Assembly: GCA_003415625.1 (NCBI GenBank)
Contig: PYIU01000008.1
Location: 3,038,001 to 3,102,000, forward strand
Reading direction: 5' to 3'
DNA length: 64,000 bases
DNA from: Aquanectria penicillioides
Lineage: Eukaryota; Ascomycota; Sordariomycetes; Hypocreales; Nectriaceae
Both the position numbers and the translations under genes were made by a program. Of the stretch, positions 9,499 to 46,084 are shown one piece after another (position 1 is the stretch's first letter; every line of letters starts with the position of its first letter). The notes beneath the pieces are model-generated. The model ran no database searches. It had not been told where the DNA came from and saw nothing but the letters and a program-made list of their open reading frames with translations.

Positions 9499-12400
9499 CT
9501 AACCCATTCCGAAAAGGGGCTCGTCAAAGTCAAAGAGTCCTAGGGACGGCACTTCTGGGGGCGCCATAACATGGCCCACACCTTGGACAAACGATCCTCC
9601 GGTAATCATGGGAAACATATCCACCATGTCTATGTCTTCGGGGCCAAGTAAAGTAGGACCCTCGGAAGGTCCAAAATCTTCACAATCTGCTTCGTACCCG
9701 GCCATGTCTGCATCATTGTCCACGTACAGTTGGAATTTTCCTCTTGGCTGAGATATTTCGCCAGTGAAATCAAAATTGACATGAAAACCGGAAGCGTTGT
9801 TTTGAATCGCGTTTTGGCCATTATAGCTTGGAGATTCATCAAGGGAAGAATAATCTTCGCCTTCGGTAGTATACCAAGAAGTTGCATCCGTATTCCCGTT
9901 TTCGATGGATTTCGGGGCTTCGCAAAATCGGGGATCGGCGGCCATCATTATGGCGTCTTTCTCATGCCTTTTCTTGTAGATGAATTTGGGTTTAGCAGAT
10001 TTATAGAAGCCACGGTTGTTCTGATAGTATATTTTACGGCCGGCATTCACGTTCCGACCAGGCCTGCCCCTGCTTTTTGCTGAAGAAGAAATGGCTTCGT
10101 CCTCGGTATCCCAATCAATGATAGAGTCAGAGTACTCCGAATCCGTGTTAATGGGACCTGGGTTTTCAAACAAAAGCTCGTCGTCTTTCATCATTGACTC
10201 ATCTTCTTCGGTCAATGGTCGATGCGCCCTGAGCATCCTCGCAGCGATTTGATGGCCTTCACGTTCGGCAAAGCCAATTGCTCGGAGGTATTGTTTCCGA
10301 TAGAGACCTGTTGTTTGGCCGTTAAAATCGAGAAGGAGCCCAATCATGTCAATGCGGCCATGCTCCGCCGCAGCTTCCAACGCGGTTCGACCCATGTAAT
10401 CGGCGCCAGGGGCATTGATGTCGGCACCTGAGGCTATGAGTCGCTTCGCAATACCTAACCTGTTGTAGAATGCTGCAACCTGAAGTGGTGTCATACCACG
10501 ATGCTTTGCAGCTGGTGCGCATGGGTTAAACCCAGCTTGAAGCAGCATTTCAACTATGGCCAGTTGCCCAGTTTCAATGGCTTTGGAGAGCGGGCTGTCC
10601 GCATAGCCAGAACGCTCTTCGTAAATATCGCTATTGCAAGCTCTCAACAAGGACTGTAACAGGTCCACATCCCCCCTAATGATTGAATTATTTAGTCGAT
10701 CAATTGAAATTACCACTGACTCTGATGAAACTTGCTGGTCGTATATTGCTTGCAGGCCTGGCGTTTCGCCTTGTAAGTTGTCTACCATTAGACTAGACAT
10801 ATTATCAAAGCTGTATCCGTGAACCAAAAGTCTTTGGATGATGTCGGTGCGAGCTTCTAGAGCAAAGTTTACCACTGATATTGAGGAAAAACTCCATTTC
10901 TGAGCCCACCATCTTTCCAAATAATAGGTTGTTTCCTCAAATGTCTGCTTAATATTATGATGTGGATGGAATGAAATGAGTCCGGCATCATCATTTTTAA
11001 GGACTCTCGGAAGCCGAGCAGTGTTGAAAACGGGAATATGGGTCAAAAGCTGGTCTAAAGTAGTGTCGTGCTCGAAACACGCTGCGATGCCAATAGCGGT
11101 AGTCTCGATTTCAAGAGCGTCAGGCGAAGCGTTGCAATGGCGTTGACGATTCGCGAGCAGCCGGGGAATCAAGGCTGCGTCGCCATCTCCGAGGACTGCG
11201 TAGAGAGTTGCCTCACAGAGTGCTCCCGGAGAGTAACTATTTGGGAAGCGGGTAAGGATTTTGTGGATGAGGGTGGAATGGCCAGTGCGAATGGCCGCCT
11301 CAATCAGTGTAAGGTCATAATAGTAGCCATCACCATTATTGAAACGGCGGACCGTGGAAATTCCCTGCAAATCAAGGTTGACAATGGTCTCCGTTAACTC
11401 CCAATTTCCAAGCCTCACGGCTAAAACGGCATCGCCGGGAGACACGGCGGCACCAGCACGGAGCAACAAGAACGCCGATTGAATAAGAATATGTGCGTGC
11501 CTGTGCCCGGCCTCTTTAAGCACTCGTTGCAGTGGCGCATCATTGAAAACTGGGTGCCGAGTGTTGGGGTCGGCGCCGGCAGCCAAAACAACCGAGATCA
11601 AGGCTGGGTTGGGAGGGCATCTGAAGGGCTTGTAAGTGATGGAGGTGGCCAAGGCAGCTGCGAATGGCGGGAGCGCGACGCCGCATCCCAGCAGGTACGA
11701 CACCACATCCGAGGCCGATTCCGCTGCTTGGAACAGAGCAGTCCCTATGGGTGTCTCTAGGAGCTGAATTTCGTCAGGCTTTAAATTGCCACCCTTTCCA
11801 AAGTATTGATTTAATACAGCTTTGCGCCACTTCTTGCTCATCCGAATGCTGCAATTCACCCTCGCGCCTGCCTCGTGCAATACCTTGACCACCTCGACAT
11901 AACTCTCGAAACACGCAAGATGAAGTGGCGATGGATAATGAGCGTGGCCAGGGTCGACCTGCGACCCAAACGAGAGGAGCAGTTTGCAGCACTCAAAGTG
12001 GCCCCTCTTTGCTGCTGCGTGCAGCGCCGTGATGCCAAACTTGTTGGCTCTCGTTACATCCAATTTGTTGTCATAGAACAATTGGAGGACATCATAGTTT
12101 CCCGCCCCTGCCGCAAATATTGCAACATCTGCTGTGAAGAACCTGCGTTTGGTCGCATCACTGGCATGTTGAACCATGTACTTCATTAGGTACAGCGCTA
12201 CCTCGGGACGCTTGTGCCTGGCTGCCTCTGTAAATGCGCTTTGCTCATAGATCATCCCCAATCTAGGCCTTTGAATGCAGTCAACGGTTGCTCCGTACTG
12301 AATGAGCAGTTTCACGCTCCTTAAATCCTCAATTGTGTTCGCCGCCCGGATCGCCAACAGGAGTGACAGGTTTCCATCCAGGACCAGGTTCGGATTAGCT

Positions 12401-30243: not shown

Positions 30244-31940
30244 CTAATTTCCTTGCACTTTGAAGTTTTCGAAAATAACAGGACTAGCCTTCATGGCTGT
30301 CTCGGTTGTAGCAAAAATGCCGAAAATCGTTCCCGTAAAGTCCTTGCCTGTCAAAGTCTCTGAAGGAATGGAACCGAGCGCCTGCCAATCGCTGCTGGGT
30401 TGTGTCGAGAATGAGAAGGAAAATTTATTCAAATTACTCTGTATGCGAAGGTAAAGCCTCCCGTTGATGCTTTTGACCATGTGGGATTGCGCCACGATGT
30501 CGATCTTAGGTTTTGCATTGGCTATAATCGCCGTGCGCAGAATGATTTCCTTGGAAGCCGAGTCATAGAATATGTCAATATGTCGATATTCGTCTTTGAA
30601 AATAGACAACCCAGCCTCAGACTTCTCACCTTGCGTAGGCAAGGTCAAGATAACTGTGGCGCAATCTGTGAGATGACGCTGCCGCTGGCCCACGAATGAC
30701 GGGGATCCTGTAGGTGACGACAACCCAATTTCACTGGGGATGAGCGCAATTTTATCTTTAGAGATCGCGTAGTGACCTTGTTGAGGATCTCGAATGTAAA
30801 CTAAAGGATCAACATTCTTCGACCTCGACTCATCCAAGTCCTCCCTGGGGCTAGCTGAGCGGATATCTCGAGAAAAGGTTAGTTGCGGGTGTGATATTTG
30901 AGGCCAAGCTTCAGCAGGCCAATCGACAGGTGTTAGGAAAGTCTCCCTTCCCAAGGGATATCTGCCGTTGTTGTAGCGGATACCAAGACAAACACACCAC
31001 CATCTAATGCTAGTCAGTATCAACCGCAAACTAGGGAGCCGAGCCTGTTCTGACTTACCTGCCGTCCCGGTCTTGGAAGAGCTCTCCATGGCCTGTGTTC
31101 CGGATATCTTCATCCTTACCGGCTGCAGTCAATAGTGGATTTGAGTCTGCTGTCTCAAAAGGTCCCCAGACGTTAGTTGATCGCGCTATAGAAATGAGGT
31201 GACCTTCAAAAGTTCCTCCCTCCGCAGCAATGAGGTAATAGAACCCATCCTTTTTATAGACATGTGGTCCCTCTGCATCCCATCGTCCGGCATAGCCATC
31301 CCAAATATGTTTTATGTCTGATAGAGGTTTTCCAGTATCAATATCAATCTCGAATTGGCGGATAGTGCAGTTTAGCTCGTGTAAAGGACCGTCACGGTAG
31401 GAGCCCTGGATGTAAGCGCGATCGTCGTCATCGAAGAAGATGCTAGGATCGATGCCTTGAAAGTCGAAATACACAGGGTCTGACCACTCTCCTGAATAAA
31501 TATCGGTAGTAGTCACGTAGAAATTGTGGCATTGTATCGCGCTCGGCTCATCTGCAACGAAATTTGTGCAAACCACGTAGAACGTGCCCTTGTGCCATCG
31601 AATGGTCGGCGCAAAGAGTCCACCAGCAGCAACCAGAGTTTGGTTGTTTTCGATGGGCACGACAACTGTCTTGGCCCCGTCTAATGAGAGCTGGGTCGGC
31701 CGATGGATAGCATTTCCTTGGAGGGACGACAACTGTTAGCTATGTTCGCAGCAGCTCTGTTTAAATAGGATACAACTTACCAATTTGTTTCCAGCCTTTC
31801 AGATTCTTAGAAGCGTAAATGGGCAACGCAGGAAATATGTGAAATGAAGAGTTAACGAGGAAAAATGTATCTTCGGATTCAACAAAAACAGCCGAGGGAT
31901 CAGGGGCAAATCCCGGAATGATTGGATTTTGATACTCCAT
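30244..31940 (-). CDS. Glycoside hydrolase family 43 (beta-xylosidase / alpha-arabinofuranosidase type)
   Basis: Three exons (31781..31940, 31059..31716, 30244..31003) give 525 residues in continuous phase. The family's three catalytic acids are visible: the general base in GFAPDPSAVFV (Asp14), the pKa-modulating Asp in GIDPSIFFDDDDRAYI, and the acid Glu in AEGPHVYKKDGFYYL. The first two-thirds form the five-bladed propeller. The C-terminal third (from about DPLVYIRDPQ to FENFKVQGN) is a beta-sandwich typical of the xylosidase-like subgroup. These enzymes remove xylose or arabinose from plant cell-wall oligosaccharides. There is no signal peptide; the protein starts directly at MEYQNPIIPG, so it probably acts inside the cell on imported oligosaccharides. 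It is divergent from the sugar transporter across a promoter with six CGTCCACC copies. Confidence 0.9.
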
Positions 31941-32566
31941 AATGTGCGGCCTTGAGGACTTGCTGTTTGCTTTGACATTCGTGCACAGCCTAATTTACAA
32001 ATCGACTATTTAAAGGAGAATGAGAATGTAAAATATTGGCTCGGGATGATTTAAACCGAACTCGTCATCAAAATCACAACACGACAATTCTCAGCTGAGA
32101 TTTCGTCCACCAACCTCCTCACCGTCCACCTGATTCTCTAATCTATGAACCCGTCCACCCTGGCCGTCCACCTCCTCAAGTCCTCAGCTGTCCCCACTAC
32201 GTCCACCCACGTCCACCCTTTAAACTTCTTTCTGGCAATAATATCCACAAATGACAGGGTTTAGCGAATATTTTCATGACCGTCTCACTTTTCCCGCCGC
32301 TTTGACTTGCGCGGTGTCTCTGTTCCCTGGCAATGGATTCTGGGCAAGACTGGATTGCTGCATCACAGCAAACCGACTCCTCACTGTCCCCAGGATTTCC
32401 CCGCACCCCAGGATTTAGACCAACATCTAAAATCGATAAATGCTCCGCCCCATGCCCGTGTTTGTCGACTAACACCTGGAGACTCATCCAGCTCGCAACG
32501 CACTCGCCAGCGGCTCATCTCTCATTTATACTTTCTCATACTTGGTCTGCCTTGCTCTATTTTGCC
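31941..32566. promoter_or_regulatory. Bidirectional promoter between GH43 and sugar transporter
   Basis: This 626-bp interval separates two divergent start codons and contains the dense CGTCCACC array described separately. A reading frame opens upstream from an ATG at 32333, in frame with the transporter, but its 78 extra residues are low-complexity and polar. I therefore treat that part as leader. Confidence 0.7.
32104..32217. promoter_or_regulatory. Array of six exact CGTCCACC motifs
   Basis: Exact copies lie at 32104..32111, 32123..32130, 32152..32159, 32165..32172, 32200..32207 and 32210..32217, all in the same orientation. That is six 8-mers in 114 bp. The flanks differ and the spacing is irregular (10 to 35 bp between starts), so this is a set of sites, not a tandem repeat. 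They lie 164-277 bp before the GH43 start and 350-463 bp before the transporter start. I infer binding sites for a regulator of both genes. Confidence 0.75.
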
Positions 32567-34228
32567 ATGGCTGAACCACCAAAAGACGAAAATATGCCAG
32601 CGGTCGCTGCACTTGATAACGTCGACAATGCCCCTGAAGAGTCGATCCAAGAACAAATCCGTCGCGATGAGCTCGAGGGATCATTGTGGCGTGTTACCGT
32701 GGCCCACAAGAGAATTCTTCTACATGCCATCGCCGCATTTTTTGCTGGTATGGTGTTCGGCTACGACGTCCTTGTCAACGCTGCATCCATTTCTATGCCC
32801 GCATTTCTCATGTACTTCGGAGCGACTGGCCAAGATGGCAGCTTCTATTTGCCTTCAATTTGGACCTCGCTCTGGACAGCCATGTCTGCCCTGATGCAGG
32901 CCCTTGGCAGCATCGGCATTGGCGCTGTGTCTGATGTTATCGGACGCCGGTGGAGTTGTATTGGCGCTTGTCTGCTGTCCGTTGCTGGTATCGCTATGCA
33001 GTACGTTACGACTAGTCGAGGTCTTTTACTCGGAGGGAAAATGCTCAACGGTTTGGCTATCGGGGCCTTGACAGCCGCCTCTACAGCCTGGGCGTCGGAG
33101 ATTTCCCCCGTGAGACTCCGTGGACCGATTCAGTCGGCTATCGTCCTTTTCACTATTGTGATGCAAGGAGCCGCCTTGGTTGTGATCAAGGTGTATGCAT
33201 CAGACATGAGCACACACTCTTTCAGGACTGTATTTGCGATTCAATGGTGTTGGTCAATTCTCACGGCTCTGATTTTTGTCGCCATGCCCGAGTCACCCAC
33301 GTGGCTCATATTGCGCAATAAGCCTAACGCAGCTAAGGAGTCAATTGCGCGCTTACATGGTAGCGATAGTCGTATCGAGGCTCGCCTCGCTGTTTTGCAA
33401 CAAGATATCGAGAGAGAGCGTCAAAATTCGGCAGAACAAGGCACTGGCAGCTAACTAGATGCGTTTAGGGGATCGGATTTGAAGCGCACCTTGACAGTCA
33501 TGTGGCTCTTCCTCGGGACGGGACTGGTTGGAGGCACCATTCTCTCACAATCTATCTATCTTCTTGTTGTCGCTGGTATGGAGATATCCCATATCTATGA
33601 CGTTTCTATCGGCGGATTTGGTCTTGCGGCCATCGCAATCATTGGATCGTGGTACATTTTGGAGCGCGTTGGTCGTCGACTGATTTGGCTGGTTGGCTGT
33701 GTTGTTAACATCCTTGCATTGGCGGTGATTGGCGGGCTTTACTATGTCCCAGGCAAAGGGAAGTTTTGGGCCATCGCAGCAGTGATGTAAGGAAGCTCTG
33801 GTTAATGTTTTATGCTGTTCTTCGCTAACATTATTTTTAGGAACGTCCTACTCTCCTGGCAGATTGTCACCATAACCGCCGTCGCCTGGATTGTTACTGC
33901 AGAGATCTCGTCTCATCGTCTTCGAGGCAAGACTCAATCGATTGCAGTATTCTCATTATCATTTACGACTTGGTTCTTTACCTTTATTACACCGTATATG
34001 TACAACACAGACGCAGGAAACCTAGGTGTGCGGTCTGCATTCGTGTTTATGGGAACCTCAGTTGTACTCTTGGTTGGCTCATATTATCTTGTTCCAGATT
34101 TACAGGGATTTACTACAAATGAGATTGACTGGCTTTATGAAAACAAAATCCCGGTCACTCAGTTTAGGGCTTACGCGGATGGAAGACTTAGAGAGACCGT
34201 GGAAGCTGTGAAGAAAGTGCCGGCGTAG
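32567..34228 (+). pseudogene. SP-family MFS sugar transporter interrupted by one in-frame TAA
   Basis: Two exons, 32567..33786 and 33841..34228 (intron with CTAAC branch), encode 535 codons. They carry the sugar-porter hallmarks: FFAGMVFGYDVLVN at helix 1, VSDVIGRRW in the helix 2-3 loop, PESPTWLI after helix 6, and EISSHRLRGKTQS in the second half. A single TAA at 33452..33454 interrupts the frame inside the central loop, between AEQGTGS and LDAFRGSDLKRTL. The family usually has Tyr or another residue there, and both sides are intact and in the same frame. It is either a recent nonsense mutation, an assembly error, or a site of readthrough: the stop is followed by CTAG, a context associated with leaky termination. 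The likely cargo is a sugar or oligosaccharide released by the neighbouring glycosidases. Confidence 0.8.
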
Positions 34229-34627
34229 CCGCTTCCCCTATAGTAAATCAAACCATAGCCACAGCAGGAGTAATGTACAAGTATGGCAGCATTTGATGTC
34301 AGAAAATATTCAGATTGTAAAAACCTATTTTTCTTTCGAAATTGGGGGATAAAATATGATATAAAAATGCACGCTAGATTATCGTATGAAGATGATTCTT
34401 GTCCCGCCTGAGACTGCATGTGTTGCACATCAACACAGGGCGTTGCAGAAAGGGTTCCTTTAGCGGTGGCCGGTCTGTGGTGAATGCTATTTAGTTCTGC
34501 AAGTGATATATATTACAATGTTTCTAGTAAATCGCCATTTGATTTCCTTCTAATTTGCTTTGTAATCTATCAACAAAAAAACGACATGTATGAACCTATC
34601 ATGGGCTATTCTTAGTCACTAGAACTG
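34229..34627. other. Convergent 3' region
   Basis: A 399-bp, AT-rich gap between the converging transporter and rhamnosidase genes. It should hold both polyadenylation regions; no gene is seen. Confidence 0.5.
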
Positions 34628-37146
34628 TTAAACCTGATCTTCCGGATGGAAATGGACCACAACACTGCTCGATGGACCTTGAATAACTTTGAGCCCCCGA
34701 TTTATGTATCCGCGGGGGGCTAGAATATCTGCTGTCACGCCGGATGGTAGGGTCAATCTCACTGACACAGAGCTCTTAGGCTTATGCTGCTGCAACTCGA
34801 TCTCAACTCGACCTCCTGAAACTTCAATATCATAGTGCGCGAAATCGACATTTGACAAGACTGGTGCAACCTGAATTTTACTCCAGCCAGGTTCCAAGGG
34901 CTTCACCCCTACCACATACTGAGGAAGAAGAAAGACTGGCCAGGTGGACCAAGCGTGCATCATGGAGCTATCATGCCCTAGTGGGGTACCAGTTGCTGTG
35001 ATGGCCTCCCAATGACCTCCGGAGTAATGAGTTTGGGATGAATCAGCCATTGGTCCCCAGACAGTTTTAAGTAAGCGGATGGCATCTTGGCCTCTTTGTC
35101 TTGTAAAGAGACCCTCGACTGCAAATCCACTTGCATAAGGACTAACAACCTTGGAGCGATCCCAGTGCGCTAGTCCCTGGAATGCTAGCGGCATATTTGC
35201 ATCAGGGTATGCCAAACGCGAGTCTCCTTTTTCAGATACTGGTGCTACGCCCAAAGATCGAGCGTAACCATTCGTATCCTGACAAAACCCATCGGCGGGG
35301 AGGGCTGTACCCATTCGAAAAATGTCGGCTTCCGAGTTCCAGAGATGTGCTAGCATATCATCTTTCAACTTGGTAGCTTCAATTCGAAGCTCATTCTTTT
35401 GAGTTGTATCACTGCTCATTGCTGCAACGGCGTTTAGAGCATCAAAGTAAGCCAGATTCAGTGTTCCTGATGCGCCGAAGACTGGACCACCCATTGGGAA
35501 CCAATGCACTTGATTCAGTCAGCTACACCCCTTGGAGTCGGATATTTCAACTTACTGGAAAGCCCAGGAGGGGCTTCAATGAGCCCAGAGGGCTTCTGAT
35601 GCGTCTTCGCAAACTCTAATAGTTTGCTGACAGCGGGCAAGCATTGCTGTACCAGCTTGTCGTCTCCAGAGTTCAGCCAATAGTCCTTAATGGCCGCAAC
35701 TAGAAGAAACGCATAGGTCAGGGAATAAAATGCATATGTAGGTGGCAAATCATCGCTTTTGTGGATAGGGGCCTGAACAGGACACAAATTACCCAGGTAT
35801 CCGTCAGGCGTTTGGTGGCTGGTGAGAAGCTCAATGCTGCCAGCAACGGCATTCATGTCCAGACCGGCATATGCAACACCCCGCCCAGAGACGAACAAAT
35901 CTCCACCAAAGCAAGATCTATCTCTTTTCGCACCGTCAATTAGACAGGCAACATAATTTGTTCCAACCTGGAAGTCTTCAAAGACTCTATCTTTGTCCTG
36001 GAGGAGCATTCCATTCTTGTACAATAGGGAGCCTTCGAAGTCTTGGACAAGGAGGTTACGGTATAGTGCAACCCATCCTTGAGGCCCACCAAATGCCATC
36101 GACCCAGTGTTAACATGGCCCCCAAGAATCGGTCGGAGCTGTAGGCCATCAACCGATGAGATTTCGCGGTTATTAATGGCTGTTACTATCCGGTCGGCTT
36201 TCACCTCGATCTTGACATTGGCCCATTCCCCGGCTTGAACAACTTCTCGGGTTGGCCAAGATCCTAGAGTTTTGGTTGGAAAGACGGCTGATTGATCTGC
36301 GAGCCCTTCATAGGCAGTAAGTGTTCCAAGGTCTGTATCGAGGCAAAAGATGATGCCATTGGCTACCATGTGAACACCCCAGCTTGCTCCATGTTGTTCG
36401 ATGAATACTTGGAATGACACTACTTTGTCACCCCAACGGGTCCCCTGTCGACATGGTGCCCAATGTTGACCAAAGACTCTGGTTCCACGGCCGGTGACCT
36501 CCCAGGCTGGCGCAGTCTCACCCTTGGCGAGACTGCACATGTCAAGAGTATAAACTCCATCCTTCCAGATGCGATTTAGCGTCTCATCTGAACAATGAAA
36601 CCGGGCCCTGGGTACCATGTGTGGTCGCACAAGGCGGTAGCCGACTTTGGTGATGGTAATGGACGAGGCTTCAGACAACAGCACGAGCTTTTGGTATCGC
36701 TGCGACCTCTGAGCGTGACTAGCCTCAATGCTCTGTAGCGAGTCCGATGGTGTTATGGTGAACTGAACATTGCGATATGTGTCCATGGCATTTGAAAATA
36801 AGAAGAATGGTCCATCACCTAGATTTATACACTGTAAGCATAATGTCAGGGCATAATGTCAGGTGTATCTGCTGGGCAATTCACCTGTGGGAGACTCAAT
36901 CTCATCCATGGTCTCGCTGTACACAACCTGGACAAGAATGGAGCCATGGCCATGAGCTTTTTCAATATTGAATACTGGGATGCCTCCCACGCATCGATTG
37001 TAGTCGAATACTATCGTCGCGCTTTCTGAGACAGCCAGTGATGCCTCGTTGGATAAGACCACAGTTCCAGAATCCTTGTCATATCGGGCACCGCTAGAAG
37101 CCCGCACGACACAGTGTGGTACAATGACATCGCTTTGTACAGCCAT
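34628..37146 (-). CDS. Alpha-L-rhamnosidase (GH78 type)
   Basis: Three exons (36885..37146, 35556..36818, 34628..35508) give 801 residues. The catalytic (alpha/alpha)6 region carries DGAKRDRSCFGGDL, matching the DGxKRDRxxWxGD signature that contains general-acid residues of GH78, though the usual Trp is Phe here. It continues with TYAFYSLTYAFLLVAAIKDY and WPVFLLPQYVVGVKPLEPGW. Before it lies an N-terminal beta-rich region (DGPFFLFSNAMDTYR) with an inserted lectin-like segment near WGVHMVANGIIFCLDTD. GH78 enzymes release terminal rhamnose from pectic rhamnogalacturonan, flavonoid glycosides or saponins. No signal peptide is present when starting at the first ATG; the open frame extends upstream with a hydrophobic stretch but no ATG. 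It is divergent from the C2H2 regulator over a promoter with CGTCCACC sites. Confidence 0.85.
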
Positions 37147-37506
37147 AATGACAAGAAAAAAAACAGCCCCGTATAGCGTTGTAGGAAGGTTGTGCAAGGC
37201 AATGGCGGAGAGCTTGGGATATATTCCGAGAGCGAGAGCGGAGTATTGCACACCCCGGATCGCTCCCGGAGCTACTACAATACTAGTCTTCTTTTAGTGC
37301 CTGTTATTAGTGCCCTTTCCACAATGATGTGTGTGACTGAAGCTGGGGGAGGGGTAAATCTCGCTGACGCTGGGCCCGGAAAAGCCGGTCGGTTATTTCA
37401 TGGAAGCCAGACTTCATGTGGGTCTCACAAGATCAGGAGGTAGACGGACGTGCGTCCACTCTGCGTCCACCCGTCCACCCTCAACATCTCGGATCTTGTG
37501 CTACCG
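37147..37506. promoter_or_regulatory. Bidirectional promoter between rhamnosidase and C2H2 regulator
   Basis: A 360-bp interval between divergent start codons. The CGTCCACC sites sit at the regulator's end, 28-54 bp before its ATG, suggesting autoregulation. Confidence 0.65.
37453..37479. promoter_or_regulatory. Second CGTCCACC cluster
   Basis: Exact copies at 37464..37471 and 37472..37479, immediately adjacent, plus a 7/8 match (CGTCCACT) at 37453..37460. The orientation is the same as the array at 32104..32217. A further partial site (acggacg) lies at 37444..37450. Confidence 0.7.
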
Positions 37507-40297
37507 ATGGCTCCATCTATTCCGACTGTGAGACATGTTCCTGAAGAGGGAACTGGGCATGAGAATTCAAGTGGATTGCTGGCTAAGAAAGTCCACTCTT
37601 GTTCGACTTGCTCTCGCTCATTTACTCGCATCGAGAATCTGAAGAGACACCAGAAAACCCGTAAGGGCAAATTCACTTTACATCTTGATATAAAATCAAC
37701 TGACGGGCTGGTAGATGGTAATATCCAGCCGTATCAGTGCCAGATTTGCCAAAGAGAATTCTCTCGTAGCGATCTCGCCAACAAGCACAAGTTGCGGCAT
37801 CAACGACGTCGTGACCATGCAGGCTCAAGCACCCCAAATATCATCGTTCGATCGAAAGAGCATCAAGGTCGTGCAAACAACTCACCAGCTTCATTCTCCA
37901 GTTTCAGTGTAGCTAGGAGTATAACAATTCAGTCGTCGTCACCTAAGCAACTCGGCAGCTTTAATTTTAGCCCTGGGCTTGAACAAAGTCTAGGCCATCC
38001 TTTCAACGCTCTGACACGGGTGCAATCCCCCAATGGAGACCACCCCGTCGACCATGGTTAGTATCTTGAAGAGAATCTCCTTTCCTTTTCGTAAATTTGA
38101 TGGTGCTAAAGTGCTATGCGGCTAGATCGCCAGAATTTCGACCCAATCGTCTCGATGTACCACCATGCCTCGCCGCCTACCTGGAATGATGACTTCCGAC
38201 GCGGTAGCTCTTCGTCTTTGGGAATGTGTGTCAATACGAGAGGTTCTCATTATGCCTTTGACCCCGATCTTTTCCTACACAACGACGGCGGGTTCTTAAA
38301 TTCTGATATAATCAAGACATCGCAATCACATCGTCGACGCCCAAGATACTCTAGCCCTAATAAAGCTGGCAGCAATGCGGCAGCAGATTCATCCAGGGTC
38401 TCTAGAAACTCGGAGTCCGTAGAAAGGATCCGAAAAATGTCCAGATCCCCTTCGCCACCAAATGTTCCCTCCCAAGAGGACAAGGTGGCATACGCCTGGG
38501 ACCCGTCCTCCAAGAATGTCACACAAATGCAGCCCATCATAATCAATGACGACCATTACCTATGGAGAAACCACAATCCAAGATTTGACATGAGCGAAGA
38601 TAGTTGGTGTCAGGTAAAGCAGTTCTTGGAACCCTATGGAGCAGCTCGAGACGATTTTACGCTCCCTCCTTTGGCTATCGCAAATGTCTTCATTGGTTTA
38701 TTTTTCGAGAGGTTCTACGAACAGTCACCTGTTTTGCACCTGCCTACTCTAGACATTGATGTCCTAAGATCGCAATTATGATGGTCATTGGGGCCAAGTA
38801 TAGCCACCTCCAACATAGTCGACATTTTGCGATATTGGTGCTTGACCGAGCTCGCCAAAATCTGCAGCAGGCTATTGAGCAGAACAACAGCTTGATGCGA
38901 GACCATGAGATTATATATGCATATTCCTTGATTTGCTACTGTGGACTGTGGTGCGGAAACAAACGGGCATATGAGCTTGCTGAAGCTTCACGCGGCACCC
39001 TGGTCACGTACATCCGGCGGCTTCCTAAGGACGATAGTGCCTTGACGGAAGATGCTGGAGATTGCGAAAGTCAATGGTCGGCATGGATACTGTCTGAGTC
39101 CAAGCAAAGGCTTCTCTGGTTTGGTTTCATGATTGACTTCCAATTTCCAGCTATCTTGAACATGAAGAGCATGATGTCCTTGTCGGAGATCGCGAGATGG
39201 GAGTGTCCTAGCGATGACGAATTTTGGTCCGTCGCAACCGCACGGATGTGGAAGAACTTGCTTGGTTCGGCGACAGTTCCTCCCACACCAACATTTGCAA
39301 TCGCCTCTGGTGCCTTTATAAACCATGCAAAGAGATCCTCGGATATCTTGTCGGCCTCGATGCCAATCCCGAAGCTTAATCAATGGACGTCATTCTTGGT
39401 CGTCGAATCTTTGGCTAGTCGCGCATTGGAGTGGTCGCATGATTGGGCCCTAGCCGTTGACACAACTCTAGAAGTAGTCAGTGAGGATAATCTCTCGGAT
39501 TTCTTTTCTATCGAGAAGATGAGTTCCCACATGCATGAGTTGTCAGAGTCTCGGGAAACAATCTTAGGTATGGGTACTGCACTGCCTTAAACTCATGCAA
39601 AGCTAACCAAGTAGCGGCATTTGACACCTGGCATAATTTTTGTTGTTCTTCGCAGCCTGCCCAGTCTAGCAAATCGCGAATCGAGTCATTTTTTCAGAGA
39701 GCCTCCCAAATACTCTACAGTCTTGCCAAAATGCCTCTTTTCATCTCGCTGTCTGACATTCAAGAGGTCCTTGGCAAGGGTGGCCGAGTGAATGTGGACC
39801 AGGCCCTATACAGATTTCGAATCACGTCTATACACGGATATTCTAGCAGCACGACAGGACAGTCGCCTTTGACATCTAATTGTGAGCGGAATACAGAGTT
39901 ATCGGAACCTTGCACTGTGTTTCACAATGCCGTCACGGATATTGTCGCAATTACAGAAGACCATCTCATGCAGTCAACATTCCCTTATAGTTTCATGAGC
40001 CTTTTTCTCAATCACGTTTTGCTCTGGATGCTGACTAAGGCGAGTACTCAGAGTCTCCGAGAAGAGATGAAGGCAGCCTTAGCTCGAGACCTCGAGTCTT
40101 CAATGAGACTCACGGGCGCAGAGTTGAAGGAGCTGCTATACTCGACGCTTACCCCAAGTGACTCCGCCAATGAGAACACTGGCCAAGACAGTGAAATTTT
40201 GAGACATGCGTCAAACGTACTATCTAGGTTAGAGACTTGGGGTGCGTCGTTGAATTTGTCGTTATTACTCCAGTGCAGGTCTGAGAGTCAGATCTGA
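37507..40297 (+). pseudogene. C2H2 zinc-finger / fungal-specific transcription factor with a 1-nt frameshift
   Basis: Four exons (37507..37660, 37715..38056, 38126..39567, 39615..40297) encode about 873 residues if one frame break is ignored. Splicing at 37660/37715 completes two tandem C2H2 fingers: CSTCSRSFTRIENLKRHQKTH, linker GNIQPYQ, then CQICQREFSRSDLANKHKLRH. A Ser-rich linker and the fungal-specific regulatory domain follow (FFERFYEQSPVLHLPTLDID, then MMVIGAKYSHLQHSRH, AAFDTWHNF). At 38776..38781 the frame reads TTA TGA, whereas the domain continues from ATG ATG one base back. A single missing A, or a -1 shift, explains it. A 38-bp intron could also restore frame but would delete conserved residues and has a poor donor. 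The regulator is divergent from the rhamnosidase and probably controls this cluster. Confidence 0.75.
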
Positions 40298-41166: not shown

Positions 41167-42928
41167 TTAAGCCATATAATATGCAAATCGCCCCAAAGCT
41201 TTATCAACGGTCCTGAGTAAGCCTAGGACTTTCTCCTCTGTGAATCTCTGCCCAAGTACCTGCAGACAGACATCTCCATCCTTGAAGGTGCTGACATTGT
41301 CTGGAGAAATGGTTAGAATTTTGAACACCATAAATCATTGAAAATTGCTTACATCTTTCCCAATTTCTCTTATCATAATCCGACATAGGATAAAAGTCTT
41401 CAGGTCTCTTTGCGTCAAGCTCTGGATGCACTGTTGTTACAGGCACAGTGGCGCACGTCCACTCTAAGAGGTTCGATATCGCTTCGTATGTAAAGTATTC
41501 CATTGTGCCGTGGGGTGGCGCAACGTGGCCGCCCGAAGGAAGTATTATTGCATCGACAGGCAGTCCGGTCTCTGTCATTTTGCTTGTGCGCTGCCAGATA
41601 TTGTGATACTTTTGACGGAGAACCTCAATGGTGGCGATGTGTTGGCGGTACTCTCGCACTGTCAGCCGCTTGCTCAACTCTGGCACCAGCGCTTCCTTGA
41701 TCAGCGGCTCATCGAATCGTGCAAGTGCCTCGCGGAGTTCCTCGCCTCCCGTCGCCATCCACATTGCCTCTGATACTTTGAGAATTTCCCGACCATCGAA
41801 ATTTTCAAGGTCAATGACCTGATGCCCTGCATTCTCAAGAGCCAGTCGTAGCTGTTGCATGCCCCGCATGATCGGCGGATGAGGCAGGACAACGCGGTCG
41901 TGCCTCATGAAAGCGAAGGCCAGTTTGTGATGACGGCCCAAGCCAACTTCATACTCGGCTTCTCTCCATGGGATATTGACGCATCCTGAATCCCACTCCC
42001 ATGGATTCATAGACAACATGGCGCGCGAATACAACTCAAGACCATCTGTGCCCCGTGCCAATGGTCCACAGACCGGTCGGATTCCACTGAGACCCTCGCT
42101 GTACTCTACAGAGTGGTATGGAAATCTTTCGGGGGATGGGCATAGCCCATAAATGCCGTTGAAGTTGGCCGGAGTACGGATCGATCCAGCAATATCGCTG
42201 CCGATACCCAAGGGGCTCCCACCAAGCGCAATCAGGGAGCCTTCCCCGCCACTGGAGCCACCAGCAGATAATGTGGTGTTGGACGGGGTACAAGTTCTTC
42301 CGTATATATAGTTGACACACTCTCCTGACATTAGAGTTTGGGGCACATTAGTTTTACAGAAGAAAACAGCCCCGGCGCTTTCTAGCTTCTGGAGCATTAA
42401 ATCTGTTCTGCGATCCTTGTTGCCAATAGAGGAAATCAGGCCGTACGTCGACTCGGTGCCTGACAAGTTGAAAGTGTCCTTGAGGCTTATTGGGAATCCA
42501 TGCAGTGGTCCCACGGGACGCCCTGTTTCTTTAAATGTGCGATCCAGCTCTTGGGCGCGTTGGATCCCACGGTCGAAAAAGACATCGGCCAAGGGATTTG
42601 TAAGATGGTGAGCAATCACGGCGCGCGAAATGAATGCTGTCAAGACGCTTTCTGCGGACCAATTTCCGTTCAAGAGATTCCTCAAGATAATGGTCGGGCT
42701 CGTCTCGGTGATGGTAATCTGCTCTTGGCTTAGAAGCCCACTCTGGACCGGGATGGTTCTGACGTATGTCACGCCACTGGCGAGATCTGAGGGGATTTCG
42801 AGCCCCCATTTTTGGATTTGGTCGTCTCGTGCAACACGCGTCTCGGTCGCGATGCGCTCCCACAAGGGTGGCGATTCTTTCAACGTATAATTAGAGGTCC
42901 CGGTAAGCAGATGAAAGGTGGAAGGCAT
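41167..42928 (-). CDS. Amidase (acetamidase-like, amidase signature family)
   Basis: Two exons, 41353..42928 and 41300 down to 41167, give 569 residues. The second exon replaces the frame's non-family ending with YNVSTFKDGDVCLQVLGQRF, the usual C-terminal block of the family. The catalytic triad is complete: Lys150 in HGFPISLKDTF, cis-Ser225 in SAGGSSGGEGSL, and nucleophile Ser249 in GSDIAGSIR. These enzymes hydrolyse small amides to carboxylates and ammonia. No signal peptide is seen, consistent with a cytosolic enzyme. Fungal homologues include acetamidases and many uncharacterised amidases; the specific substrate is unknown. It converges with the C2H2 gene, and its promoter lacks the CGTCCACC element, so I do not place it in the glycosidase regulon. 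Confidence 0.92.
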
Positions 42929-43892
42929 TTTCTGAAGCGAAATGGAAGAGATTTTTGAGCGAGAATTAGTTGCTTGCAGCCGCGTTTGGGCTGGACTTAT
43001 ATTTGCTTATTTCACGGTTTTTACTCGGCGGGTGCCTCTGGCTAGCTAAGGATTAGGATAGTGGAGCGGTAGCGCCGGGACAGCTGTGAATGCCCCGCCG
43101 GAGAGAAAAAACTGGTCTTGACTGGTCTTGACAGGTCAACTTGAGTGATAAATGGCTGTCGGCTGTTCTGCATATCGGTCTCACGCAATCCAAGTCCCGT
43201 GCGATGTCTAATCAAATCTCGTATTACTCCGACGTCGACAATCTTTTCGGCATCCCGTATATGCCTTTAGACCACTCCATTACTCCATTCGATACACGGA
43301 GGTCTCAAGCTGTTCCAAGGTCACACAGGGAGGGCCAAAACACGCAATCTCCATGTTGGTGATTCCGAGTATAGGGTAGGTGGTCCTGGTTGTTGAAAGT
43401 ATAGAACCCAAAGTACCACTTGTTTCGGCAAGGGGATACCTCCAGTTTTTGCTGAGGTGCTATGGTTCAATACTGGTGTGGTCCTGGTGAACAAGGAGGA
43501 TGAACGGCACGTCATTCAAGGAAATGACAGTGAAAAGGGGAGAATTCTCGATTGATTGAGTTGCCCCTATCAATATGCACTCTTCAACAATATTTACTAG
43601 CCCTTTTTGTTTTGAAACGCAAGTGGTACCTTATCACATCGCTTGCTTGTGTAGGGCGGTACGTGGGTGGCTTTTGGACTCCGGATGTGGCTTTGCGGCC
43701 ACGTGAGCGCTCGAGGCGTTTTCGCAGTTTGCCTTGTGCCGGTCTGTGAGATAAATTCGCTTGGCGACAGCCATAGTTGTAGGCTTACGTGACGAGGACT
43801 TCAGGATATATAAACCCTGCTGGCTGGGAACATTGTCATTTCCTGGCCAAGGTCCCTTCGCGAAGGACCGCTATAACTCAAAAGCGCCCACA
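42929..43892 (+). promoter_or_regulatory. Intergenic region with HET-gene promoter
   Basis: The divergent upstream region of the amidase (leftward) and HET gene (rightward). A TATATAAA box at 43806..43813 lies 80 bp before the HET ATG at 43893. A short direct repeat (ctggtcttga twice) is at about 43111..43131. No gene is supported inside. Confidence 0.6.
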
Positions 43893-46084
43893 ATGACAAC
43901 GACCCCGGCTATCGGCTCATCAGCCATGGCAGCACTGGCAAAGATTCTGGAAACTGACACCTTGGCCAGAAACAAAAACGATCAACATCTCCCAACTCCC
44001 GACATGAGCCAGGTTTCTACGAATGACCGCTCACTGCAAGATTCGAGAGTCATTAACAACCTGCTGGGGCCAACTCCATGGGGCATTTCTTCCAAAAGAC
44101 GATTTTCTTTACAGGGCGCATGCAAATGGTGCGGAGGCCCTTGGGATTTTGGAGGTGATATGAACGAATATTTAGAGCTGGGCCCTGTACATGAGCTGTC
44201 CTCACGAAACTGTACCTTGTGTAACTTTTTCGCAACTCTCCTTGCAGTGGAATCTACGGCACGCGGAGGGCCCATCGACGACTATCGGCTGGGACGCGAG
44301 AATTCAGTCTTCCTTGTTGAGGAATACCAGGTCGGATACCGCGTAGAACTCAACGCGACTACAAGGGCGAGGCTACGCGATCCCTCCTTTGGCCGACTGG
44401 AAGTACCCTCGGTCATCGGAGAAAGACCTCTAAATCCAGCCTTGGTCACCAAATGGTTGTTAGATTGCGAAACACGCCATGGACAAAAGTGCAGGTCCTC
44501 ATACGCGCCAAGAGCAAAAAAGCACAATATCAATCTTATTGATCTCGAAAATAGGTGTATCATTACGACATCCGAGGCGTATCAATACGTGGCCCTCAGC
44601 TATGTTGTCGGCAGTGGAAAGCAACTCAAACTCACCCAAGCAAACAGTCTTCGCCTGAGAGAACCTGGGTCGCTCTCCAAGGAAGTGCTCCCTCAGGCTG
44701 TTTGGGATGCCATGGTATTTACGCAGGCAATAAAACAAAGGTTTCTCTGGATAGACAGCCTCTGCATCGTCCAGGATGACCAAGTTACAAAACACGAGCA
44801 AATTATGAACATGGACACCATCTACAGTCGGGCAGCTCTGACTATTGTCTCAGTATCTGGAAATAGTTCCGAATCCGGTTTACCAGGCATTAGACCTAAT
44901 TCTCGACCAAGGTTGAATTTAGTAGGTGATCGGGGCGAGGGTGGCACTGTAAAAGCCTGGCCCCCCAAATTTACCGAAATAATGTCATCGTCGCCATACG
45001 AAACACGTGGATGGACCTTTCAAGAGAGAATTCTGTCACCACGTTGTTTATACCTTACGAACTGGCAAGCCTTCTTTCACTGTCGAGAAGAGCTTCGATC
45101 CGAATACCCTTTCATTGAGCAAAATAACCCAGCTCAAAGACCTACGGAAGTGCAAGCGTTCAATCCACTTGATGCGATTCCGCCCAATATTGAGCATTGC
45201 CTTCCTATGGCTTCTGTCGACTTTTTCAGATGCTATGCACTACTGGTCAAAAACTATACGCAACGCTCATTGTCTTTCTCAAATGATATTCTCAATGCCT
45301 TTGCGGGTATATCGACTGCTCTAGGGCGAATGCAAGGAACAAACTTTGCATGTGGTCTACCGGCTGCTACACTCGAAAAAGCCCTACTTTGGACCCCTGT
45401 AATGCCACTCAAGCCCAGAGAACCATTATCGTCACAACCATCAAACCCGAATATACTACCCTCGTGGTCGTGGGCTGGTTGGGTTGGCCCAGTTACATAC
45501 GATCTCGTGGTTGGGGATCACCGTCCACCCCCGATTTCGGAAATATTCGACATCCAGTGGCTCCGCGGAGATAGGATTCACTCATCAATTACTTCAAGTA
45601 AAAAGGAAGGCTCCTTAATAAACAATTCTAGCAGGAACTTCGGGCCTCATAATGTTCTTTGTTTCAGAGCTACAGTTACTAGGCTCGACAGTTTCAAATA
45701 CCTGATGGAGGAATTTCGGTATCGACAAAGCCTATTCCCCGCCGACGCGCAACAAGGAGACCCCATTAATTGTGGTTTCATCTGGGAGCTTGATACATAC
45801 ATGTCTCAAGTGAAGGACAAGGCTTCTTGTGAGCTTGTTATGATGGGCACCGCTACTTGGGTGGACGGACCTGGCAGAAGGACATGTAACCAATTCATAG
45901 ACGCAAAGGGCTATTCAAATTCAATATATAATACCGGGGGTCTAAAGAAGAAGAGGTTACCTTGGTTCATGTTATGCTGATAAACTGGGAAGGGGACGTG
46001 GCGAAGCGGCTGAGTGTTGGGTCGATTCATCAGGACGCGTGGAATGAGGTACGAACAGAGCGGAAGATAATCACATTAACTTAA
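43893..46084 (+). pseudogene. HET-domain protein with a probable C-terminal frameshift
   Basis: A single exon reads about 695 residues to a TGA at 45978. The start is the ATG at 43893, after the TATA box; in-frame sequence further upstream has no ATG. The N-terminus has a Cys-containing CKWCGGPWDF block. The HET domain carries its three hallmarks: YQYVALSYVVGSG, RFLWIDSLCIVQDD with MDTIYSRAALTIVS, and ETRGWTFQERILSPRCLYL. Such proteins trigger heterokaryon incompatibility or related cell death. The ending KKRLPWFMLC is atypical. In another frame the family's usual C-terminus appears: EEEVTLVHVMLINWEGDVAK, running to TAA at 46082. One extra G in the G5 run 45936..45940 would join them, so I suspect a 1-nt loss or a sequencing error. 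The main domain is intact either way. Confidence 0.78.

What the first reader, a model, noticed from the sequence alone, without database searches (positions are those of the whole stretch)
31941..37506. Shared CGTCCACC arrays mark a fungal glycosidase regulon
Six exact CGTCCACC copies in 114 bp (32104..32217) lie between GH43 and the sugar transporter. Two exact copies plus one near copy (37453..37479) lie between the rhamnosidase and the C2H2 regulator. By eye I find only three other exact copies on either strand in 64 kb, all single and inside coding sequence (near 45522, 45860 and 55490), close to the ~2 expected by chance. Both arrays have the same orientation and sit in bidirectional promoters, which would let one regulator control four genes. 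I know of no published regulon with this exact element, though I cannot search.
Basis: partly seen in the sequence, partly recalled or inferred. Interest (0 to 1): 0.9.

Follow-up and report, generated by a model that had tools for sequence, protein, structure and literature searches.

The report
Paired control sites in fungal rhamnose cluster
Two promoters in a fungal sugar-gene cluster carry a known-type switch for the plant sugar L-rhamnose next to repeats of a second DNA sign of unknown binder, which also occurs at a core rhamnose-breakdown gene, so the genes are probably controlled together.

Summary
Array A has six exact CGTCCACC (32104-32217); array B has two plus CGTCCACT (37453-37479). 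They lie in the head-to-head promoters of GH43/sugar transporter and GH78-type/C2H2 regulator. The 8-mer is not enriched genome-wide (1,733 versus 1,879 for the reversed word), but only 8 places in 53.8 Mb have three or more CGTCCAC with gaps up to 30. One of the six outside the window lies between genes for L-rhamnonate dehydratase and a RhaR/PDR-1-type activator. Both window promoters and that one also carry an exact TCGG-N11-CCGA, the PDR-1 consensus of Neurospora. This site is frequent around the 15 other GH78-type places: 8 found, 0.99 expected, other spacers 0 to 3, half of them upstream. Best reading: the cluster belongs to the L-rhamnose (RhaR) regulon, and the arrays are a second element at a few of its promoters, binder unknown. 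The local C2H2 protein is a candidate, weakened by a frame break in its gene. No rhamnose gene was seen at the three other arrays that could be read. No cross-species or expression test was possible.

The parts
30244..31940 (-). GH43 glycosidase gene (Glyco_hydro_43 plus GH43_C2), no signal peptide seen by eye
   Evidence: start read
32041..32059 (.). PDR-1/RhaR-type site TCGG-N11-CCGA in promoter A, 44 bp before array A
   Evidence: of spacers 2-30 only 11 gives a hit in promoter A
32104..32217 (+). Array A: six exact CGTCCACC, irregular spacing, unrelated flanks
32567..34228 (+). Sugar transporter gene (Sugar_tr); in-frame stop at 33452-33454 in this assembly
34628..37146 (-). GH78 alpha-L-rhamnosidase-type gene; weak but above-cut-off Pfam matches (Bac_rhamnosid6H 30.3 bits, cut-off 24.5; Bac_rhamnosid_C 28.4, cut-off 22.1), weakest of 21 matches in the genome search
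   Evidence: best solved-structure match an alpha-L-rhamnosidase, 8iwd, 43.9 bits
37446..37458 (+). GGACGTGCGTCCA, an inverted CGTCC repeat that overlaps the first copy of array B; 3 copies genome-wide
37453..37479 (+). Array B: CGTCCACT, CGTCCACC, CGTCCACC
37489..37507 (.). PDR-1/RhaR-type site TCGG-N11-CCGA in promoter B, 9 bp after array B; its last base is the A of the C2H2 start codon
   Evidence: of spacers 2-30 only 11 gives a hit in promoter B
37507..40297 (+). C2H2 (two fingers) plus Fungal_trans regulator gene; frame break at about 38760-38781 before the Fungal_trans part

Best explanation
The four-gene cluster is part of the fungal L-rhamnose (RhaR/PDR-1) regulon. A RhaR-type Zn2Cys6 activator binds TCGG-N11-CCGA in both head-to-head promoters and switches on a transporter and two apparently intracellular glycosidases (GH78-type, GH43), which would import and cleave a rhamnose-containing plant oligosaccharide or glycoside, and also the local C2H2 gene. 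The CGTCCACC arrays beside these sites are clustered binding sites of a second regulator that acts with RhaR at a subset of rhamnose promoters, including the one between L-rhamnonate dehydratase and RhaR. Shown by sequence: the arrays, the RhaR-type sites, the gene types, the rhamnose locus. Inferred: binding, rhamnose response, cooperation. Most likely second regulator, weakly supported: a protein of the local C2H2 family, which would then control its own promoter.
For: Array A far beyond chance, with an invariant core and random flanks. Of 8 places with three or more CGTCCAC, two are here 5.2 kb apart and one is at the rhamnose locus; that one of six falls in that 3.1-kb interval has an expectation of 3.5e-4, a figure computed after the fact. 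Dehydratase: 749.7 bits to solved L-rhamnonate dehydratases 3fxg/2p0i. Its neighbour's best NCBIfam match is Lra1 L-rhamnose dehydrogenase (339.2 bits, below the cut-off of 400). In N. crassa pdr-1, putative lra3 and putative rha1 have consecutive locus numbers NCU09033-09035 (PMC5469009, passages); rhaR/lraC are divergent in A. nidulans (PMC4245848, passages). Exact TCGG-N11-CCGA in promoters A and B: joint expectation 6.5e-5 from 916 genome sites. Motif checked in this genome: 8 sites in 58,247 bases around 15 other GH78-type places, 0.99 expected, spacers 2-30 other than 11 give 0-3. C2H2 recognition residues (finger 2 R,L,K; finger 1 R,N,R) suggest KTG-GAG, five of six bases of GTGGAC in the element (fingers; the code is recalled).
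Against: No DNA of related species, no expression and no binding data. Five other arrays of three or more copies (C6:3617092, C7:3641618, C8:2694225, C8:3117340, C11:744085): three were read and show no rhamnose gene, two could not be read. Four of these five (periods 10, 10, 11, 12) and the rhamnose-locus array (period 8) have a fixed period, as tandem repeats do. Of the 8 RhaR-type sites around GH78-type genes only 4 lie upstream of the domain match; 4 lie on its downstream side. Clustered copies lie no nearer than 113 kb to any other GH78-type place or 234 kb to any listed HpcH_HpaI place. CGTCCAC is not enriched near TCGG-N11-CCGA genome-wide. The C2H2 gene has a frame break and the transporter an in-frame stop, so the cluster may be decaying. 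The GH78 assignment rests on weak matches. The predicted C2H2 site misses at the base where the recalled code is strongest; by my own estimate, from no call, 5 of 6 at any offset is about a 3-5% event.
Confidence: 0.52

Rival explanations
1. One reading: the local C2H2 protein alone binds CGTCCACC, controls the four genes and its own gene, and RhaR is not needed.
For: Array B ends 27 bp before the C2H2 start codon; C2H2 relatives largely keep the recognition residues (14 sequences); in Penicillium waksmanii and Didymella exigua a relative of the C2H2 protein and one of the transporter appear to lie on the same contig, judged only by identical longest-contig lengths 4855768 and 555192.
Against: Exact RhaR-type sites in both promoters; the C2H2 gene has a frame break, and its Fungal_trans part has no close paralogue in the genome (next best 35.5 bits); the predicted site differs at one base.
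Confidence: 0.2
2. The arrays bind a general carbon or stress regulator not specific to rhamnose, for example the unknown agent of CreA-independent glucose repression.
For: Other CGTCCAC clusters lie near genes with no known tie to rhamnose; in A. nidulans rhamnose genes are glucose-repressed independently of CreA (PMC7532622, abstract and passages).
Against: Only 8 arrays of three or more copies were found genome-wide, few for a general regulator that uses arrays; a 2012 paper in the reference list seen places that repression at inducer uptake (title only seen).
Confidence: 0.15
3. The arrays are neutral: tandem-repeat or relic sequence in a decaying cluster.
For: Frame break in the C2H2 gene and in-frame stop in the transporter; five of the six arrays outside the window are periodic with a fixed unit.
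Against: Array A is not periodic, its flanks are unrelated and all six cores are identical; RhaR-type sites beside both arrays and the array at the rhamnose locus.
Confidence: 0.12

Closest known systems
A. nidulans RhaR regulon (PMC4245848, abstract and passages seen)
   Same: alpha-L-rhamnosidase genes and L-rhamnonate dehydratase under a Zn2Cys6 activator encoded beside the dehydratase; site CGG-X11-CCG; here exact sites of this form in both promoters
   Different: No CGTCCACC array in the passages seen; here a second element and a C2H2 regulator gene are added
N. crassa PDR-1 regulon (PMC5469009, abstract and passages seen)
   Same: TCGG-N11-CCGA consensus; pdr-1, put. lra3 and put. rha1 with consecutive locus numbers, like the C7 locus here
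   Different: No CGTCCACC element or C2H2 partner in the passages seen
A. niger RhaR-dependent motif TG[CAG][GTA]GGG (PMC5617896, passages seen)
   Same: A second short motif linked to rhamnose-dependent genes
   Different: The sequence differs from CGTCCACC/GGTGGACG; predicted with MEME from A. niger promoters
CreA and ADR1-type C2H2 sites (SYGGRG, TTGGRG; recalled, from no call)
   Same: TGGA/TGGR core and two-finger C2H2 binders
   Different: The element has C where these have G

Membership tests
RhaR/PDR-1 (L-rhamnose) regulon | TCGG-N11-CCGA or CGG-X11-CCG in the promoter | tested here: met
   Exact in A (32041) and B (37489); spacer control
RhaR/PDR-1 (L-rhamnose) regulon | RhaR/PDR-1-type activator in the genome, beside L-rhamnonate dehydratase | tested here: met
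   C7:2326436-2329035 with dehydratase at C7:2321636; no direct comparison with the named N. crassa or A. nidulans protein was made
RhaR/PDR-1 (L-rhamnose) regulon | Gene product acts on rhamnose-containing substrate | tested here: inconclusive
   GH78-type domains by weak matches above cut-off and best solved-structure match an alpha-L-rhamnosidase; activity not tested
RhaR/PDR-1 (L-rhamnose) regulon | Induction by L-rhamnose that depends on RhaR | not testable with these tools
   no expression data
   0 of 15 other GH78-type places have a clustered copy within 113 kb (lists); other glycosidase families were not checked; one rhamnose-pathway promoter does have an array
   no fungal DNA outside this genome was available
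   only a recalled recognition code; 5 of 6 bases fit

The most novel reading that the evidence does not exclude
CGTCCACC is the binding site of an undescribed second rhamnose regulator, the C2H2/Fungal_trans family of this cluster. In dense arrays next to RhaR sites it makes selected promoters (import and intracellular cleavage, plus the dehydratase step) respond only when both signals are present, with the C2H2 gene in a feed-forward loop under RhaR and itself.
Probability: 0.25. Interest if true: 0.65.

Novelty: new variant of a known kind. Interest (0 to 1): 0.48.

Why it matters
In the papers seen, the fungal L-rhamnose regulon rests on one activator, RhaR/PDR-1. A second clustered element at some of its promoters could explain how fungi tell free rhamnose or pectin from particular rhamnosides, and it gives exact sequences for reporter and DAP-seq tests. 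It also ties a C2H2/Fungal_trans family found in Colletotrichum and Nectriaceae relatives among others to a pathway. If the arrays prove neutral, the RhaR-type sites still place the four genes in a known regulon.

Tried and rejected
Literature search for the 8-mer itself: 1,140 papers hold it; the 20 listed look unrelated by title and none was read. Searches for a C2H2 rhamnosidase regulator or the core GTGGAC (1, 4, 2 and 202 papers, the last with 8 listed) gave no listing that describes this element; that is not proof of absence.

Direct binding of the array by RhaR: rejected as unlikely, since the element has no CGG. CreA: the element has C where the recalled consensus SYGGRG needs G. XlnR GGCTAA (recalled): absent from A and B. 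GaaR CCNCCAA (recalled): one match in A, overlapping the first copy only, none in B.

C10:1940528 (CGTCCACCCGTCCACC, with GGACGTGCGTCCA 0.85 kb away): followed through; the neighbours read by eye as a 6-phosphofructo-2-kinase-type and a GSK3-type kinase gene, not sugar-polymer genes; left unexplained.

Aldolase (HpcH_HpaI) genes as further members: nearest clustered copy 234 kb or more from any of 9 places. LRA1 upstream region: no CGTCCAC and no RhaR-type site.

Full report
What is there. The window is C12:3038001-3102000 of an unnamed 53.8-Mb fungal assembly in 13 contigs. Its RhaR-type protein is 90% identical to one from Mariannaea and 89% to one from Ilyonectria, so the source is probably a nectriaceous fungus (inference). 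The cluster is GH43 (-), sugar transporter (+), GH78-type (-) and C2H2 plus Fungal_trans regulator (+). The GH78 assignment is weak: 30.3 and 28.4 bits over cut-offs of 24.5 and 22.1, and it is the weakest of 21 matches in the genome search; its best solved-structure match is an alpha-L-rhamnosidase, 43.9 bits.

Is it more than chance. CGTCCACC occurs 1,733 times in the genome, against 1,879 for the same word read backwards, so the word is not enriched overall. From that density 0.87 same-strand pairs with a gap of 0-30 are expected. Observed were 24 pair matches against 7 for the reversed control. They reduce to 18 distinct places, 16 of them outside the window; 8 of the 16 lie in an open frame of 235 codons or more and may be coding. 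For three non-overlapping CGTCCAC with gaps up to 30, 14 matches (control 3) reduce to 8 places: A, B, C6:3617092, C7:2324067, C7:3641618, C8:2694225, C8:3117340 and C11:744085 (the tool says it skips simple repeats, and runs of CGTCCA with overlapping copies, as at C1:5025816 and C13:1683974, are not counted). A alone has six copies. Its flanks are as different as unrelated DNA, which speaks for selected sites and against tandem duplication. Five of the six places outside the window have a fixed period (8, 10, 10, 11 and 12 bp), so slippage could have made those.

The rhamnose locus. The array at C7:2324067-2324097 lies about 0.8 kb before the assumed start of an L-rhamnonate dehydratase gene and 2.3 kb before that of a Zn2Cys6 regulator gene on the other side, with an L-rhamnose-dehydrogenase-like gene next to the dehydratase. 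The dehydratase matches solved L-rhamnonate dehydratases at 749.7 bits; the best NCBIfam matches are L-rhamnonate dehydratase (380.9 bits, cut-off 393) and Lra1 (339.2, cut-off 400), both below cut-off. The same three gene types have consecutive locus numbers in N. crassa (PMC5469009, passages), and the divergent rhaR/lraC pair is described for A. nidulans (PMC4245848, passages).

The RhaR-type site. Papers give CGG-X11-CCG for A. nidulans RhaR and TCGG-N11-CCGA for N. crassa PDR-1 (passages). The longer form occurs 916 times in the genome and four times in the window, at 10282, 32041, 37489 and 50638 (1.09 expected). Two of the four are in promoters A and B, 44 bp before array A and 9 bp after array B; the joint expectation is 6.5e-5. 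The promoter between dehydratase and RhaR has one too (C7:2323634; 0.054 expected). In A and B no other spacer from 2 to 30 gives a hit; in the dehydratase/RhaR interval spacers 10, 20 and 21 give one each. I scanned several recalled carbon-regulator motifs in the same script. To see whether the site means anything in this fungus I counted it in the 58,247 distinct bases held around the 15 GH78-type places outside the window: 8 with spacer 11 against 0.99 expected, and 0-3 for every other spacer from 2 to 30. Four of the 8 lie upstream of the domain match and four on its downstream side, one only 29 bp from the match. So the link to GH78-type genes is strong as a neighbourhood but only half are placed like promoter sites. 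The DNA held reaches 1.5 kb beyond each domain match, so not every promoter is covered.

What the arrays are not. Of the 15 other GH78-type places, 14 lie 113 kb or more from the nearest clustered copy listed, and one is on a contig with none. CGTCCAC up to 30 bp before a RhaR-type site: 4 matches, three of them array B, control 4; 20-50 bp after one: 7, array A among them, control 6. So there is no sign of a broad CGTCCAC regulon. Of the five other triple places, three were read: C6:3617092 (L033, 3 kb), C7:3641618 (L045, 3 kb) and C8:3117340 (L060, 6 kb). Six of the longer ORFs at the first two gave no Pfam family; at the last a CFEM protein and a phosphoesterase were found. None of the three has TCGG-N11-CCGA in the DNA held. 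Of all the pattern-hit loci held (L001-L054), only those of A, B, the rhamnose locus and L054 (C8:1628638) hold one.

The binder. The C2H2 protein has two fingers whose recognition residues are largely kept in an alignment of 14 sequences (FTRxENLKRH; FSRSDLLKKH, with I or V for the first L in some). By the recalled C2H2 code this suggests KTG-GAG, five of six bases of GTGGAC. That is weak support. The gene's frame breaks at 38760-38781, just before the Fungal_trans domain, where relatives have an unbroken stretch, and the Fungal_trans part has no close paralogue. The transporter frame holds a stop at 33452-33454, inside a block that was recognised in 7 of 11 relatives examined. Assembly error, an unusual intron or real decay are all possible. 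The transporter's relatives include proteins named maltose or alpha-glucoside permease, and by eye neither glycosidase has a signal peptide; hence the reading as import and intracellular cleavage (inference).

Verdict. Observation confirmed. Interpretation partly supported: co-control is likely, with RhaR as best-supported controller; CGTCCACC is a real, rare, local second element of unknown binder.

Noticed in passing
window 33452-33454: In-frame stop in the sugar transporter frame, inside a block conserved in relatives; a nearby branch-point-like and acceptor-like sequence leaves an unusual intron possible.
   Followed up: partly
window 38760-38781: Frame break in the C2H2 regulator gene before the Fungal_trans domain; the relatives aligned are unbroken there.
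   Followed up: partly
window 37446-37458 and C10:1939677, C1:6685699: GGACGTGCGTCCA, an inverted CGTCC repeat, occurs only three times in the genome, once overlapping array B and once 0.85 kb from another CGTCCACCCGTCCACC pair.
   Followed up: partly
L055:2999-3014 (C10:1940528): CGTCCACCCGTCCACC in a long gene-poor stretch between a 6-phosphofructo-2-kinase-like and a GSK3-like gene (read by eye).
   Followed up: partly
window 36838-36863: Perfect two-copy 13-bp tandem repeat in what looks like an intron of the GH78-type gene.
   Followed up: no
window 10282 and 50638: Two further TCGG-N11-CCGA sites in the window, with no array beside them.
   Followed up: no
window 41204-43006 and 43755-45980: Amidase gene and HET-domain gene beside the cluster.
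   Followed up: no
(P0027, P0051; P0031, P0056): Relatives of the C2H2 protein and of the transporter appear on the same contig in Penicillium waksmanii and Didymella exigua (identical longest-contig lengths), which suggests an old or transferred gene pair.
   Followed up: no
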